Origin: Pirellula sp. | GTDB taxonomy: Bacteria; Planctomycetota; Planctomycetia; Pirellulales; Pirellulaceae | Direction of reading: 5' to 3' | NCBI GenBank assembly: GCA_021299695.1 | Contig: JAJTEK010000002.1 | Span: forward strand, 59,913 to 123,912 | DNA: 64,000 bases | Shown: positions 29,608 through 55,275 of the stretch, in pieces | Position numbering within the stretch: the stretch's first letter is position 1 | How the letters are laid out: every line of letters begins with the position of its first letter | Made by a program: the position numbers and the translations under genes | The notes under the pieces: model-generated | Database searches by the model: none | The model's input: only the letters and a program-made list of their open reading frames with translations | Told to the model about the DNA's origin: nothing

Positions 29608-29625
29608 CGTGGGTTATTCGATGTT

Positions 29626-29820
29626 CGTGCATCGCATCGGATTTCGTCGTGCTCGTGCTCGCTGGCTGTTTGAACTGCGGCGCTGCCGATCGTTGATCGA
29701 GGCGGTTTAGTGGAAATTGCAGACCTATGGTCCGGATTGCTATACTAGATCGAATCGAGTACGGGAAGAAGCAAGAACAAAGCATTGGACCGAAGTGCTC
29801 GATCGAGCGTTTTTGACTTG
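29626..29820. repeat. GTACTCGTACTC element, copy A
   Basis: The left part has the conserved GCATCGCATCGGATTTCGTC followed by a degraded arm (GTGCTCGTGCTCG). The middle (CTGGCTGTTTGAACTG...GATCGTTGATCGAGGCGG) is shared with copies B and D. The right part has CGAATCGAGTACGGGAAGAA and ends in the palindrome GCTCGATCGAGC followed by GTTTTT (29797-29814). It lies between the convergent giant-protein gene and the lipoprotein gene at 30002. Homology to copy C continues past it to about 29850. Confidence 0.85.
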
Positions 29821-29862
29821 TGTAAAGTCTCCTCCTCGCACTCGGTCAGTGGGGTTCTTTCA

Positions 29863-30007
29863 TGCATCGCATCGGATTTCGTCGTACTCGTACTCAGCGA
29901 AGCGGTACTCGTACTCGTACTCGCTGGCTGTTTGAACTGTGGCGCTGCCGATCGTTGATCGAGGCGGTTTGGGTGAACTTGGGGACCAATTGGCCGGATT
30001 GCTATTC
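29863..30007. repeat. GTACTCGTACTC element, copy B (3'-truncated)
   Basis: It begins with GCATCGCATCGGATTTCGTC and intact arms, then the shared middle segment. It stops after GCCGGATTGCTAT, where copy A has CCGGATTGCTATAC. The TAG stop codon of the minus-strand lipoprotein gene (30002-30004) lies inside the repeat, so the insertion or recombination may have set that gene's end. The right arm and terminator-like end are missing. Confidence 0.85.
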
Positions 30008-30496
30008 GGGGACGACCCAGAGTTCCGCTTTTTCGCTGTCGTAGCGGTAGACCATACCGGTTGGGAGTTTGGGTAGCGGGATGCGATTGAACTCGACGAT
30101 ATCTCGCATGAATTCGTCGTGGTTGCGAGGGTTGCGACCTTTTTCAGCCATGTACAAATTCATGGCTTGGGGGATTTGGATTTCAAAGACGATTTTCTCT
30201 TTGGTGCGAAAATACGCTGCTGCCGGACCCGAGATGATCGTCGCGGGGTTGTTCTCCGAGCCACCGTCGAGCGAGCGGCCTTTGGAGCCTACTCCAACGC
30301 CTGCCTTTTGGGCGACACGGGGAGGTTCTGCGGCAGCCGCCGCATCGGCTTGTGCCTGTTTCTGGGCCGCTAGGTCTTTTTGAACCTCTTGCTCAGGTTT
30401 GCACCCTAACTGGGGGCCAAAAACGAATCCGGCGAGCACGAGCGTTTTCAAGGCAAGGGGTTTGCGCACAAGGGAATGGATCGGGGCTGTTCGCAT
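30002..30496 (-). CDS. Small exported protein, possible lipoprotein
   Basis: 164 residues. A basic N-terminus, a hydrophobic stretch (LALKTLVLAGFVFG) and PQLGC at about 29-33 suggest a lipobox, though the -3 residue is Gln rather than Leu. A Gln/Ala-rich helix follows (EVQKDLAAQKQAQADAAAAAE), then a compact domain ending in GMVYRYDSEKAELWVVPE, which resembles C-terminal strands of pilin-like or secreted planctomycete proteins. The stop codon falls within repeat copy B. It follows the membrane protein gene on the same strand by 36 bp, so the pair is probably an operon. Confidence 0.65.
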   Translation of the reverse strand: MRTAPIHSLVRKPLALKTLVLAGFVFGPQLGCKPEQEVQKDLAAQKQAQADAAAAAEPPRVAQKAGVGVGSKGRSLDGGSENNPATIISGPAAAYFRTKEKIVFEIQIPQAMNLYMAEKGRNPRNHDEFMRDIVEFNRIPLPKLPTGMVYRYDSEKAELWVVPE

Positions 30497-35268: not shown

Positions 35269-36210
35269 ATGAACATGCTCTGCGTTGGGACGTTGGCGAT
35301 CGACACGGTAGAAACCCCTGCTGGCAATCGAGAACGGGTCCTCGGTGGCAGCGCTAGCTACTTTGCTTATGCGGCTGGTTTCTACACGCCTGTGCGGCTC
35401 ATAGGGCGCACCGGAAATGACTGGCCAGAGGATTATACTCGAAGTTTCCAGAATCACCGAGTCGACTGGCGCGGAGTAACCAGCGATTCGCAAGCTAAAT
35501 CGTATTTTTGGCGAGGTCGCTACTTGGAGGATTATCAAGATCGCCAGACGCTCGAGATCCAAATGCACGGATTCGACCGATATCGACCAAGCGTACCTGA
35601 CTTTTATGTCGATTCTGAAATCGTTTTCTTAGCCGCCGCTATCCCTACCGTTCAACACCAAGTCCTCGAGCAGTGCACGAGAGCTAAATTGGTGTTTGCC
35701 GATACGGTGGATATGTGGATCGATACGACGCGTTCGGAATTGCTCGAACTGCTTGCGAAAATCGATGGGCTATTCATCAACGATATCGAGGCCAAACAAC
35801 TCACGGGCAAGTCGAATTACGTCCAAGCGGCTCGGAGCATCCAGGCGATGGGGCCTCGTTGGGTCATTCTCAAAAAAGGAGAACATGGCTGTTTCGTACT
35901 CGGACCCGATCTGATGCTGGCCATACCGGCTTACCCCAGCGATCGCTTGATCGATCCGACCGGAGCCGGAGATAGTTTCGCCGGCGGCTTACTGGGACAC
36001 CTTTGCGAGAACTTGGATTCAGAGGTTCTCGGCGAGCGATCCTCCGTTGCGATCGATCGCCGGGTCTTTGTCCAAGCTGTCAAGCACGGGACGGCGGTCG
36101 CAAGCTACACCATCGAATCCTTCAGCATCGAGCGCTTGGAGCAGATCACGCGCGAGGATATCGAGAAACGCGTCGCGCAGATCGACTCGCTGTTGGGTCA
36201 CTGCGGGTGA
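35269..36210 (+). CDS. PfkB family carbohydrate kinase
   Basis: 313 residues. The N-terminal PfkB signature reads VLGGSASYFAYAAG and the C-terminal one DPTGAGDSFAGG at 229-240, with catalytic base D235. An anion-hole GAGD and the ATP-binding NDIEAKQLTG are present. The family phosphorylates sugars, nucleosides or related compounds; the substrate cannot be told, though the compact lid region resembles adenosine/ribokinase-like members. Divergent from the YheT gene and convergent with the deacylase gene; repeat copy C lies immediately downstream. Confidence 0.88.
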   Translation: MNMLCVGTLAIDTVETPAGNRERVLGGSASYFAYAAGFYTPVRLIGRTGNDWPEDYTRSFQNHRVDWRGVTSDSQAKSYFWRGRYLEDYQDRQTLEIQMHGFDRYRPSVPDFYVDSEIVFLAAAIPTVQHQVLEQCTRAKLVFADTVDMWIDTTRSELLELLAKIDGLFINDIEAKQLTGKSNYVQAARSIQAMGPRWVILKKGEHGCFVLGPDLMLAIPAYPSDRLIDPTGAGDSFAGGLLGHLCENLDSEVLGERSSVAIDRRVFVQAVKHGTAVASYTIESFSIERLEQITREDIEKRVAQIDSLLGHCG

Positions 36211-36230
36211 TCGTATTTCACGTCCTGATT

Positions 36231-36475
36231 ACTTCGTACTCGTACTCAGTGAAACGGTACTCGTACTCGTACTCGAAAGGGCGCAGGTCACAGAGCGAAT
36301 CTTTGACCACGAACGACTCGATGTCTATCGACCTGCGATCGAGTACGAGTACCGCGATGCTGAGTACGAGTACCGCGATGCTGAGTACGAGTACCGCGAT
36401 GCTGAGTACGAGTACGGGAAAACGCAAGAATAAAGCATTGGACCAACGGGCTCGATCGAGCGTTTTTTGACTTGT
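36231..36475. repeat. GTACTCGTACTC element, copy C, with four-helix-bundle gene remnant
   Basis: The left arm is TTCGTACTCGTACTCAGTGAA then GGTACTCGTACTCGTACTCG. The middle differs from the other copies: at 36296-36343 it encodes RIFDHERLDVYRPAIE, which matches the N-terminus I know for four-helix-bundle (S23/Avd-like) proteins, with ATG replaced by ATC. This runs into three perfect 21-bp units, GAGTACGAGTACCGCGATGCT, at 36341-36403. The right end has GCTCGATCGAGC followed by GTTTTTT. It lies between the convergent kinase and dtd genes. Confidence 0.85.
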
Positions 36476-36502
36476 GTGGCGATAACTCCTCTTACTCGGT
36501 TC

Positions 36503-36943
36503 TCAAGGGTGATCGATCACGAAGGTCACAGGCCCATCGTTGACCAAGGCGACTTGCATGTCGGCTTGAAAAATCCCGCGTTCGACGCGCACTCCCAGCG
36601 AAGCGACCTGATCGCAAAAAAGCTCGTAGAGATTTCGAGCCTTTTCGGGGGCCGCGGCTCGATCGAAACTGGGCCTGCGTCCTTTTCGGCAGTCGCCGGC
36701 CAAGGTGAACTGAGAAACGATGAGGACTTGACCTGCGAGTTCCAGGACCGAGCGGTTCATTTTGCCCTGGTCGTCTGCAAAGGCTCGGAGGTTGACGGTC
36801 TTTTCGGCAAGCCACCGCACCGATTCGACCGTATCGCCTTGCTCGACACCTAGGAGCACGAGCCAACCTTGTTCGATTTGGCCAACGACGACGTGGTCGA
36901 CACGGACATTCGCGTTCAAGACCCGTTGCAGCACTGCGCGCAT
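36503..36943 (-). CDS. dtd: D-aminoacyl-tRNA deacylase
   Basis: ATG 36943 ([16 protein letters not shown]) gives the standard 146-residue enzyme. The two family motifs are present: SQFTLAGD and the Gly-cisPro motif in [10 protein letters not shown]. Dtd removes D-amino acids wrongly attached to tRNA and acts in the cytoplasm as a homodimer. It follows the methyltransferase-like gene by 5 bp and is probably co-transcribed with it. Confidence 0.95.
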
Positions 36944-36948
36944 GCGAC

Positions 36949-37497
36949 CTAGGCTGCCTTGGTCTGTTGCACAGGCATGGCGGTATTCGGTACAGGAACT
37001 TTCACCAGGGGTTCGCCTGGGGATCTTGCCACGAAGAGGGTCGATTGGACGTGGCACAATCGGGGCAACCATTGCGCGATCGCTTGGCCATTGGCATCCC
37101 CATTCTCCCAGAAACCGTCGATGATGACCAAGTCGCTCGGGAGCACACTGTGAGCGACTCGAGCTACCGAGCCGGCCGGTTCACCTGGGATCAAGTGGGC
37201 TTTGACCCCGTGTTCGGAGAGAATACGGTGAGCGGCTTTGAGGCTCAGCAATGGTTGCCCGGCGTTGGCAGATGGGTTCGATTCGAATGGATCGATAGCG
37301 GTGTATCGAATGGGCTTGGGTTCCGAAGCCTTCGCGTTGATAGCTAGCAATTGAGCGATCCGTTGACCGGATCCCATGCCGATTTCTAGGATGGAGCTCA
37401 GGGGGTTATCAAGGACGTGTAGGAAGAGCGCTCGCTGCGAGACTGGCTTGGAGAGGTATTTCCAGTAAAGTCGTTCGAGCCAAGAGAGTTGAGCCAT
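36949..37497 (-). CDS. Class I SAM-dependent methyltransferase-like protein
   Basis: ATG 37497 ([15 protein letters not shown]) is preferred; an upstream start at 37563 would add 22 residues. The 182-residue protein has a Rossmann motif I ([13 protein letters not shown]) and the later [10 protein letters not shown] and [14 protein letters not shown] strands, but it is short and lacks a recognisable substrate domain. It ends 5 bp before dtd. Methyltransferase activity is likely from the fold, not proven. Confidence 0.65.
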
Positions 37498-37738
37498 GGG
37501 GGTCGTTCCCGAGAGAGCCAAAAGAGTGAGCCGAGTCGATTTTGTGTAAATTCCCATCGGCACCCGAGCGCTCGGCGAACCAAAAAAAGTGATTCAAACC
37601 AACTATTTTAACAGTCGTTAAAGATTCGCCGAATGTCGATCATGCGACATAAAGAGGCACCCGAGGTTCCTTGATTTGTCGCCGGGGGCAACGGATGATT
37701 GAGTACTGATTGCTTGAACCGAAAGTAGAAGATCTGAA

Positions 37739-39193: not shown

Positions 39194-39274
39194 ACCACGG
39201 AATACACCGAACACACGGAAGCAAGAGATGACGGTGGGAGGATTCGTTTCCGTGTGTTCGGTGTGTTCGGTGGT
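39194..39274. repeat. 81-bp near-palindromic intergenic repeat, copy 2
   Basis: Left arm ACCACGGAATACACCGAACA..., right arm its near-perfect inverse (...TGTTCGGTGTGTTCGGTGGT), arms of about 29 bp around a loop of about 22 bp. It matches 44497-44577 at most positions. It lies between co-directional ccoG and rpn-like genes. Confidence 0.9.
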
Positions 39275-54095: not shown

Positions 54096-54719
54096 ATGAT
54101 CGGCGGATTGAATTTACTGCGATGGGTCTTGGTCGCCGTCTCGATCGCTGCGATATTTTTGCAAGCCAATCACTTGATCGCTATCGGTCGATTTGAGCTT
54201 GGTCCGTTTTTTAGTTTTTTCACCATTCAGGCCAATCTTATAGCGATTGGGGTTTTGGTGATTTCCGCTTTGGGTGGAGTAGGGTTGTCCGACGGATTGC
54301 TAGCGGCTTTGCGAGGGGCATCGGTTTTGTATTTGACGATTACGGGCTTGGTGTATGCGGTGTTGTTATCGCAGTTGCCGATGGTCAAGGAGATCGTCCA
54401 TCCGGTGGCCGATGGGGTGCATCATTTGCTGATACCTTTGTGGGTATTGTTTGATTGGGTGGTCGATCCGCCTAGGGATCGCCCTGGGTATCGCCGATCG
54501 CTTTGGTGGCTTTCGTATCCATTGTTTTTTTTATTTTTCTCGTTGTTGCGAGGGGCTATTACCGGCTGGTATCCATATCCTTTCTTGAGTCCGGATCAGC
54601 CGGGTGGTTGGGTGGCAGTAGCGATAGTCAGCGGTGTGATTCTCTTGATCGCATGCGTGTTGATTGGATTGATACGGTTGTTAGTGCCACGGGGCTCTCG
54701 GGCCGATCGATCGCTCTAG
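54096..54719 (+). CDS. Pr6Pr family membrane protein
   Basis: 207 residues with about six hydrophobic helices. The pattern (FFSFFTIQANLIAIGVLV, GLVYAVLLSQLPMVKEIVHPVADGVHHLLIPLWVLFDW, RSLWWLSYPLFFLFFSLLRGAITGWYPYPFL) matches Pr6Pr (FAR-17a/AIG1-like) proteins, integral membrane proteins of unknown function. The start is immediately after the esterase stop. Confidence 0.85.
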   Translation: MIGGLNLLRWVLVAVSIAAIFLQANHLIAIGRFELGPFFSFFTIQANLIAIGVLVISALGGVGLSDGLLAALRGASVLYLTITGLVYAVLLSQLPMVKEIVHPVADGVHHLLIPLWVLFDWVVDPPRDRPGYRRSLWWLSYPLFFLFFSLLRGAITGWYPYPFLSPDQPGGWVAVAIVSGVILLIACVLIGLIRLLVPRGSRADRSL

Positions 54720-54756
54720 AATGGACGAGATTTTAGGGGAAGACTACGCGCAAATG

Positions 54757-54973
54757 AAAAACGCTCGATCGAGCACTTCGGTGCAATGATTTGTTCGTGA
54801 TTCTTCTCGTACTCGTACTCAGCATCGCGGTACTCGTACTCGTACTTGATTCGATCAACGATCGGCATCGTAGCAGGTCAAACAGCCAGCGAGTACGAGC
54901 ACGAGTACCGTTGCACTGAGTACGAGTACCGTTGCACTGAGTACGAGTACGACGAAATCCGATGCGATGTGCG
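54757..54973. repeat. GTACTCGTACTC element, copy D1 (inverted)
   Basis: On the minus strand it has the same order as copy A: GCATCGGATTTCGTC, arms with GAGTACGAGTACCGTTGCACT-type units, the shared middle, and GAACAAATCATTGCACCGAA before GCTCGATCGAGCGTTTTT. Compared with D2, about 49 bp are missing between two TTCGATC sites, consistent with deletion across a short repeat. Confidence 0.88.
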
Positions 54974-55017
54974 AACGACCCGAATTGACCGTATGCGAGA
55001 AGGAAACGTTACACATG

Positions 55018-55275
55018 TCAAAACCGCTCGATCGAAGACTTTGGTGCAATGATTTGTTCGTGCTTCTTCTCGTACTCGTACTCGTACTCAGCATCGCGGT
55101 ACTCGTACTCGTACTCGATTCGATCTAAAACAGCAATCTGGCCCATAGGTCTGCAATTTCTCGCGAACCGCTTCGATCAACGATCGGCTTCGTAGCAGGT
55201 CAAACAGCCAGCGAGCACGAGCACGAGTACCGTTGCACTGAGTACGAGTACGAGGAAATCCGATGCGATGTGCGA
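55018..55275. repeat. GTACTCGTACTC element, copy D2 (inverted)
   Basis: The most complete copy. It has both arms (GTACTCGTACTC and its inverse), the shared middle, and ends near GCATCGCATCGG on the galT side. The two D copies lie in tandem, 45 bp apart. Confidence 0.88.

What the first reader, a model, noticed from the sequence alone, without database searches (positions are those of the whole stretch)
36231..36475. Mini-element carrying the start of a four-helix-bundle gene between inverted GTACTCGTACTC arms
Copy C has conserved arms shared with copies A, B and D, but its middle reads RIFDHERLDVYRPAIE (36296-36343), which matches the N-terminus of S23/Avd-like four-helix-bundle proteins as I know them, with the start ATG changed to ATC. 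The coding remnant then runs straight into tandem GAGTACGAGTACC units. I infer that the family derives from a mobile element whose cargo is a four-helix-bundle gene, and that these copies lost it, much as MITEs lose transposase. The origin of mobility is unknown.
Basis: partly seen in the sequence, partly recalled or inferred. Interest (0 to 1): 0.75.

Follow-up and report, generated by a model that had tools for sequence, protein, structure and literature searches.

The report
Broken copy of S23-gene jumping element
This stretch is an inserted DNA element that has lost most of its only gene, an S23 four-helix-bundle gene that sits intact between the same mirrored arms elsewhere in this genome; most genes of this family that were sampled across bacteria lie between such self-matching arms, which likely makes them a widespread and overlooked class of mobile DNA.

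Summary
The finding holds up and is larger than claimed. Window copy C is an insertion of 293 bp (36214-36506) with a 9-bp target duplication (GGGTGATCG); two same-genus genomes have the uninterrupted site. The same genome holds the filled form: arms, an intact 154-aa S23/23S_rRNA_IVP gene (PF05635, E 8.6e-22) and the same kind of tail, also with an empty counterpart. Copy C is 91% identical to it over 5' arm and gene start, then jumps to the 3' arm: an internal deletion. Arms pair and covary; dN/dS of intact genes is 0.05-0.37. Beyond the genus, 51 of 78 sampled S23 loci have strong inverted arms, against 2 of 617 mismatched flank pairs and 0 of 142 shifted controls; 41 of 51 arms have a 7-nt period. 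A Pseudoxanthomonas S23 element matches full length in 3 of 38 genomes. I infer that S23 genes are generally the cargo of hairpin-armed mobile elements and that unexplained heptamer repeats are their remains. The moving enzyme is not identified; target duplications vary from 0-1 to 20-28 bp.

The parts
36205..36213 (.). left copy of the 9-bp target site duplication GGGTGATCG; it holds the stop codon (36208-36210) of the upstream ORF
   Evidence: empty sites in G018:C83 and G014:C111 hold one copy; ORF 35269-36210
36214..36506 (+). whole inserted element, copy C (293 bp), gene-deleted derivative, between convergent ORFs 35269-36210 (+) and 36503-37072 (-)
   Evidence: absent from G018 and G014, present in G010 (272 bp, 21 bp shorter); ORFs
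36236..36275 (+). 5' arm GTACTCGTACTCAGTGAAACGGTACTCGTACTCGTACTCG
36287..36343 (+). remnant of the S23/IVP gene, codons 1-19, start codon GTC instead of ATG
   Evidence: translation; 91% DNA identity to the intact C104 element; tblastn
36340..36416 (+). 3' arm, four GAGTACGAGTAC blocks spaced 21 bp, complementary to the 5' arm; still in frame with the C-terminal tail of the lost protein
36417..36506 (+). tail shared with filled and gene-free copies
36507..36515 (.). right copy of the 9-bp target site duplication GGGTGATCG
29625..29853 (+). gene-free relative (head, ~90-bp core, tail); ends approximate
   Evidence: head/tail projection; core
29860..30012 (+). gene-free relative, truncated (head, 5' arm, core, no tail found); ends approximate
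54718..54974 (-). gene-free relative with part of the core; ends approximate
54981..55275 (-). gene-free relative with full ~90-bp core; ends approximate

Best explanation
Copy C is an internal-deletion derivative of a mobile element whose full form carries one S23/IVP four-helix-bundle gene between inverted, repetitive arms, and the S23 protein likely acts on the folded arms to help both filled and gene-free copies move. Shown: the insertion with target duplication, the filled element with the same arms, head and tail, the deletion, the pairing of the arms, the low dN/dS of the gene, and the wide association of S23 genes with self-complementary heptad arms outside 23S rRNA. Inferred: that the arms fold into a long hairpin in RNA or single-stranded DNA with the gene in the loop; that S23 binds this hairpin; that gene-free copies use S23 or another enzyme in trans; and that slippage and arm-to-arm copying keep the arms repetitive and matched. 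In the five readable sites with a duplication the head joins just after GATCG while the other end of the duplication varies, so one strand cut looks site-specific and the other loose; this is my reading of few sites, and short shared bases leave each junction uncertain by a few positions.
For: Empty/filled copy C with 9-bp duplication. Filled element C104: intact 154-aa PF05635 gene, empty in G018 with an 8-10 bp duplication. Copy C = 91% to C104 over arm plus gene start; the deletion junction lies in a short ATCGARTACG stretch (sequences). Arms of 8 filled elements: 96.3% of 297 cells paired; 10 cells changed on both sides against a shuffled mean of 3.3 (reached by 0 of 500) and 0 in every slid version; but the count of pairs with such a change (4) is reached by 61 of 500 shuffles. 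dN/dS 0.05-0.37 in the 27 of 28 gene pairs with a defined ratio. Broad sample: 51 of 78 loci with arm score >=16 against 2 of 617 mismatched pairs and 0 of 142 shifted controls; lag-7 identity 0.57 against 0.26, best period 7 in 41 of 51 against 32 of 337. None of the 80 loci matches the own 23S rRNA. 9 of 24 plasmid hits were inspected and all 9 have arm score 17-31 (null median 8, maximum 25). Pseudoxanthomonas group: full-length match in 3 of 38 genomes at one site.
Against: No mobilising enzyme was found: one RVT_1 gene and one Y1 ORF (two partial matches) in the own genome, neither shown to be linked; the Y1 locus has no arms. Duplication length is not fixed (0-1, 4-5, about 7, 9, 8-10, 20-28 bp), and one site (L035) could not be read. 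11 of 78 broad S23 loci score below 12, so arms are not universal or have decayed. In one of three Pseudoxanthomonas-group copies (G048) the 5' arm pairs better with another copy's 3' arm (22) than with its own (18). Movement of S23 itself was not observed; a role of S23 in moving the element is inference. The third PF05635 gene of the genome (C201) has no such arms. A folded tail was not supported.
Confidence: 0.7

Rival explanations
1. S23 is a passenger: the arms belong to an ordinary MITE family moved in trans by an unrelated transposase, and an S23 gene was captured once.
For: Most own copies lack the gene (2 intact in 58 loci); the genome holds at least one transposase-type gene, a Y1 ORF.
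Against: S23 genes from many phyla sit between self-complementary arms of unrelated sequence (51 of 78), which one capture cannot explain; dN/dS is low; the arms are internal and the duplications vary.
Confidence: 0.2
2. These are dispersed relatives of 23S rRNA intervening sequences whose hairpin is cut out of transcripts by RNase III, so that insertion in operons is harmless; the hairpin is for RNA removal, not for DNA movement.
For: Same anatomy as described for Coxiella: complementary borders around an S23 ORF, excised by RNase III (PMC4990558, abstract and introduction read). On a cyanobacterial plasmid S23 lies between co-oriented cas6 and cas4.
Against: No RNA data were available; copy C lies between convergent ORFs; this alone does not explain the duplications and copy numbers. 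It could act together with the best explanation.
Confidence: 0.35
3. The arms are regulatory or terminator repeats that were shaped in place, and the S23 association is a by-product of where such repeats lie.
For: The heptamer repeats reported in Xanthomonas and Nostoc lie mostly in non-coding DNA near ORF ends (PMC4692102, abstract and discussion read).
Against: Empty sites with target duplications; 0 of 142 shifted control positions near S23 genes show such arms.
Confidence: 0.05

Closest known systems
23S rRNA intervening sequences (IVS) with S23/IVP ORF
   Same: S23 gene inside an element bordered by complementary sequences; called parasitic elements in the Coxiella paper (PMC4990558, introduction)
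   Different: Here outside rRNA genes, in many dispersed copies, with target duplications, repetitive arms and many gene-free derivatives
MITEs
   Same: Small copies without a full gene that share ends with a gene-bearing form
   Different: Arms lie 22 bp and about 90 bp in from the ends of copy C, the gene-bearing form codes for no known transposase, and the duplications vary in length
REPINs / REP-RAYT (PMC3116915, seen in a search listing only)
   Same: Two inverted repeats in a short dispersed element (recalled)
   Different: S23 gene in the filled form; no RAYT-type gene shown to be linked
Heptameric repeats: Xanthomonas GGGAATC and Nostoc GGGGA(C/T)T (PMC4692102), Beggiatoaceae TAACTGA (PMC4679880), cyanobacterial STRR (recalled)
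   Same: 7-nt units, dispersed, mostly intergenic; in two Xanthomonas genomes 70 and 75 cases of two facing repeat sites (PMC4692102, passage read)
   Different: Origin or role reported as unexplained; neither main text holds S23, 23S or four-helix as a term
23S_rRNA_IVP genes in cas loci (PMC3936711, one passage read)
   Same: 18 such genes reported in cas loci, often with Cas4 or Cas6; one here lies between cas6 and cas4 with arms
   Different: The passage read treats them as a function associated with cas genes; 'inverted' does not occur in that main text. Here they look like inserted elements
Avd proteins of diversity-generating retroelements
   Same: Small four-helix-bundle proteins (recalled)
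   Different: The own protein passes the cut-off only for 23S_rRNA_IVP and TIGR02436; the only RVT_1 gene found lies on another contig

Membership tests
23S rRNA intervening sequence | encodes an S23/IVP protein | tested here: met
   filled form: PF05635 E 8.6e-22, TIGR02436 E 1.6e-21; copy C holds only a remnant
23S rRNA intervening sequence | complementary borders able to form a stem | tested here: met
   8 filled elements; 51 of 78
23S rRNA intervening sequence | lies inside an rRNA gene | tested here: not met
   blastn of own 23S pieces against 80 broad and 31 near S23 loci: no match at 1e-10; the own 23S is on contig C202, the S23 genes on C104, C228, C201
23S rRNA intervening sequence | excised from RNA by RNase III | not testable with these tools
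   needs RNA data
MITE | inverted repeats at the very ends | tested here: not met
   empty sites place the ends outside the arms
MITE | fixed-length target duplication | tested here: not met
   0-1 to 20-28 bp among six readable sites
MITE | partner element with the same ends coding for a transposase | tested here: inconclusive
   a partner with the same head and tail was found, but its only gene is S23
REPIN / REP-RAYT | linked Y1 (RAYT) transposase | tested here: inconclusive
   one Y1 ORF in the genome, no arms in its 3.3-kb locus
Diversity-generating retroelement (Avd) | reverse transcriptase next to the four-helix gene | tested here: not met
   a single RVT_1 match in the genome, on C107; S23 genes on C104, C228, C201
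Heptameric repeat families | 7-nt tandem period, dispersed copies | tested here: met
   41 of 51 arms with period 7; heptad pattern 875 against 22 control matches in the genome of L185, 295 against 15 in that of L223, weak in two others (417/249 and 265/167). In the window's own genus the arm unit is 6 and 21 nt, not 7

The most novel reading that the evidence does not exclude
S23/IVP genes define a bacteria-wide class of minimal mobile elements: one four-helix-bundle protein plus a heptad-repeat hairpin, with no conventional transposase. The abundant, long-unexplained heptameric intergenic repeats of cyanobacteria, xanthomonads and others are their solo arms and gene-free copies, and rRNA intervening sequences are the few copies that landed in rRNA genes.
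Probability: 0.5. Interest if true: 0.92.

Novelty: new variant of a known kind. Interest (0 to 1): 0.82.

Why it matters
S23 proteins have a solved fold but no known function (PMC4990558 introduction), and heptameric repeats have been catalogued in several bacterial groups without an origin; the 2015 Xanthomonas/Nostoc study ends by saying that their role remains to be elucidated. If S23 genes and such repeats belong to one element class, both puzzles become one testable question: does S23 bind and move its own hairpin? It would also suggest where rRNA intervening sequences come from and why S23 genes turn up in cas operons.

Tried and rejected
Profile search of the remnant peptide alone: no hit. 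Fixed-duplication transposase model: rejected because the six readable sites give 0-1, 4-5, about 7, 9, 8-10 and 20-28 bp; the 4-5 and 7 bp values were read by eye. Of the 10 own elements put into the joined-flank search, 6 gave an empty site and 5 of these a readable junction; WA, WD and L045 gave partly filled sites, L039 gave many repetitive matches and was not followed. Tail hairpin: I saw facing stretches in three tail types, but neither folding energy (28 tails) nor a gapless pairing score (median 6 against 5 for random 27-mers) supports it, so it is not claimed; a formal alignment of 25 of the 28 tails misaligned the types and was not used. Reverse-transcriptase model: only one RVT_1, unlinked. 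REP-RAYT model: one Y1 ORF without arms. Rfam: nothing at gathering threshold in 29600-55600. Second-lineage empty site for G029: no congener held. S23 in phage records: no match. Paper searches for a prior description; I saw none that joins S23 or four-helix genes with dispersed arms, but I read listings for most, and the library lacks most subscription journals. A first arm test in near relatives used related flanks as its null, which shared arms contaminate (null up to 36); the broad test replaced it.

Full report
What is there. Copy C lies between two convergent ORFs, 35269-36210 (+) and 36503-37072 (-). It has a 5' arm at 36236-36275, a coding stretch, four complementary blocks 21 bp apart at 36340-36416, and a tail.

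The filled form exists. A genome search with PF05635 (23S_rRNA_IVP) found three genes. The one on C104 lies between GTACTCGTACTC arms and codes for 154 aa, with PF05635 at E 8.6e-22 and TIGR02436 at 1.6e-21; the one solved relative by sequence is 2gsc. The one on C228 has the same plan with GTGCTC arms. The one on C201 has none of these arms. The C104 protein matched in 33 of 40 genomes, the own one included. Of the 12 relatives' loci listed, five carry exact arm 12-mers on both sides of the S23 match, four on one side and three none. The tool gives these genomes handles, not names; the genus looks planctomycete-like to me, from recall only.

Copy C is a deletion derivative. It is 91% identical to the C104 element over positions 4-117 of the query, that is the 5' arm plus the first 60 or so bases of the gene, and its tail matches those of other copies. 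In frame it reads VTERIFDHERLDVYRPAIE and then the repeated EYEYRDA of the arm-encoded C-terminus, so codons 20 to about 126 are gone. The junction falls in a short ATCGARTACG stretch that the intact gene has at both places (sequences printed), as expected of slippage or end-joining at microhomology (inference). The start codon is GTC.

It inserted. Matching window 35300-37500 against 27 genomes showed G018 and G014 matching the two flanks with a 9-bp overlap. Scripts confirmed it: GGGTGATCG stands on both sides of 36214-36506 and once in the empty sites (one base different in G018). G010 has the element at the same place, 21 bp shorter. For ten other own elements I searched the joined flanks in seven relatives. 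Six gave empty sites. Among them is the filled C104 element, absent from G018, with a duplication of 8-10 bp. The others give 20-28 bp (L051), 4-5 bp (L048), about 7 bp (L037), 0-1 bp (L015), and one unreadable case (L035). In the five sites with a duplication the head joins just after GATCG; GATCG occurs 4.7 times per kb of strand in the window, so the preference is suggestive only.

Copies. Of 58 own loci with arms examined (55 fetched stretches and three in the window; the arm-free C201 locus was left out, and not every place listed was fetched), 33 have facing arms within 40-600 bp and 25 do not. Many share a ~90-bp core without coding match instead of the gene. Two hold an intact S23 gene and two more a clear remnant (copy C and C20).

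The arms are under selection to pair. On eight filled elements, 96.3% of 297 cells in 41 pairs are standard pairs, more than in any of 500 shuffles. Ten cells are changed on both sides against a shuffled mean of 3.3, and none in any slid version. Against this, the number of pairs with such a change (4) is reached by 61 of 500 shuffles, and the number of further pair types (8) is not above the shuffles (497 of 500 reach it). The eight elements are two related groups (GTACTC and GTGCTC arms), so these are few events. Gene: dN/dS 0.05-0.37 in 27 of 28 pairs, one undefined; several dS values are saturated.

It is general. In other families of the same order several S23 genes also sit between arms, of quite different sequence. 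Of 78 with enough flank, 51 have an inverted-arm score of 16 or more, 67 of 12 or more, and 11 below 12. Mismatched flanks: 2 of 617 at 16 or more; positions shifted 1.3 kb: 0 of 142. The arms are tandem repeats: mean identity at lag 7 is 0.57 against 0.26 in controls, and period 7 is best in 41 of 51 against 32 of 337 control pieces. None of the 80 loci matches the own 23S rRNA. In plasmids, 24 records match, 23 of them cyanobacteria by name; I inspected 9 and all have arms of score 17-31, against a null of 70 mismatched pairs with median 8 and maximum 25; two of the nine are near-identical stretches on two plasmids of one strain. They lie between unrelated genes, for example cas6 and cas4, or two ribonucleotide reductase genes. 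A 2013 survey lists 18 such genes in cas loci, often with Cas4 or Cas6 (PMC3936711, one passage); an inserted element would explain that.

A second lineage with presence and absence. In 38 genomes of the group of L216 (Pseudoxanthomonas) the site of its element, which looks like carA-carB from recall, has a full-length match in 3. I inspected seven of the other 35: six have 13-124 bp between the genes and one has 460 bp of other sequence; none shows heptad arms in what was printed. The three filled copies have different arm units. In two of the three the own arms pair best (28 and 26); in G048 the 5' arm pairs better with another copy's 3' arm (22) than with its own (18). The listing also shows facing arm matches elsewhere in these genomes, such as G045:C20 near 759,100, without a match to the gene between them.

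Dispersed arms. In G029, of another family, the S23 locus gave 108 matches, nearly all of them to its arms. In the genome of L185 a heptad pattern occurs 875 times against 22 in the reversed control, with GGGAATA, the unit of its S23 arms, prominent in the part listed; in L223's genome 295 against 15; in two others the contrast is weak (417/249 and 265/167).

Compared with what is known. IVSs in rRNA are described as parasitic elements with complementary borders, cut out by RNase III, some coding for S23 (PMC4990558, abstract and introduction). CPR rRNA insertions include IVP ORFs (PMC11270868, one passage). Heptamer repeats in Xanthomonas and Nostoc are reported with 70 and 75 facing pairs in two Xanthomonas genomes and no known role (PMC4692102, abstract, discussion and passages), and TAACTGA repeats in Beggiatoaceae with no evident mechanism of transfer (PMC4679880, abstract and passages). 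Searches of these two main texts for S23, 23S and four-helix found nothing. That cyanobacterial STRRs are the same thing is my recall of the older literature, not a test.

How it most likely works. I propose that the transcript or a single-stranded DNA form folds through the arms, that S23 binds this hairpin, and that insertion happens next to a GATCG-like site with a loose second cut, after which slippage and arm-to-arm copying keep the arms matched and repetitive. Gene-free copies would be carried in trans. Only insertion, deletion, pairing, low dN/dS and the association are shown; the binding, the enzyme and the intermediate are not.

Noticed in passing
window 39194-39274: Another inverted pair (27-nt arms, 93% complementary, 27 bp apart) with GTTCGGTG units, like the S23 arms of another family's genome (L092); looks like a gene-free pair of a different arm family.
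   Followed up: no
window 55117-55206 and many own gene-free copies: A conserved ~90-bp core without coding match stands in place of the gene; on one strand it holds a TATACT promoter-like box.
   Followed up: partly
L309 (Anabaena sp. 90 plasmid pANA02) 1483-1851: An S23 gene with arms between cas6 and cas4, next to cas1d; a published survey lists 18 such genes in cas loci (PMC3936711, one passage).
   Followed up: partly
L158 1279-2403: A lone reverse transcriptase gene in the own genome, with ORFs on both sides that look transposase-like to me from recall; type not determined.
   Followed up: partly
L012 508-972 and L070: The 3' arm codes for the C-terminal tail of the S23 protein (EYEYRDAEYEYE), so arm changes also change the protein.
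   Followed up: partly
window 36503-36505: The end of the inserted element supplies the stop codon of the convergent ORF 36503-37072 (-).
   Followed up: no
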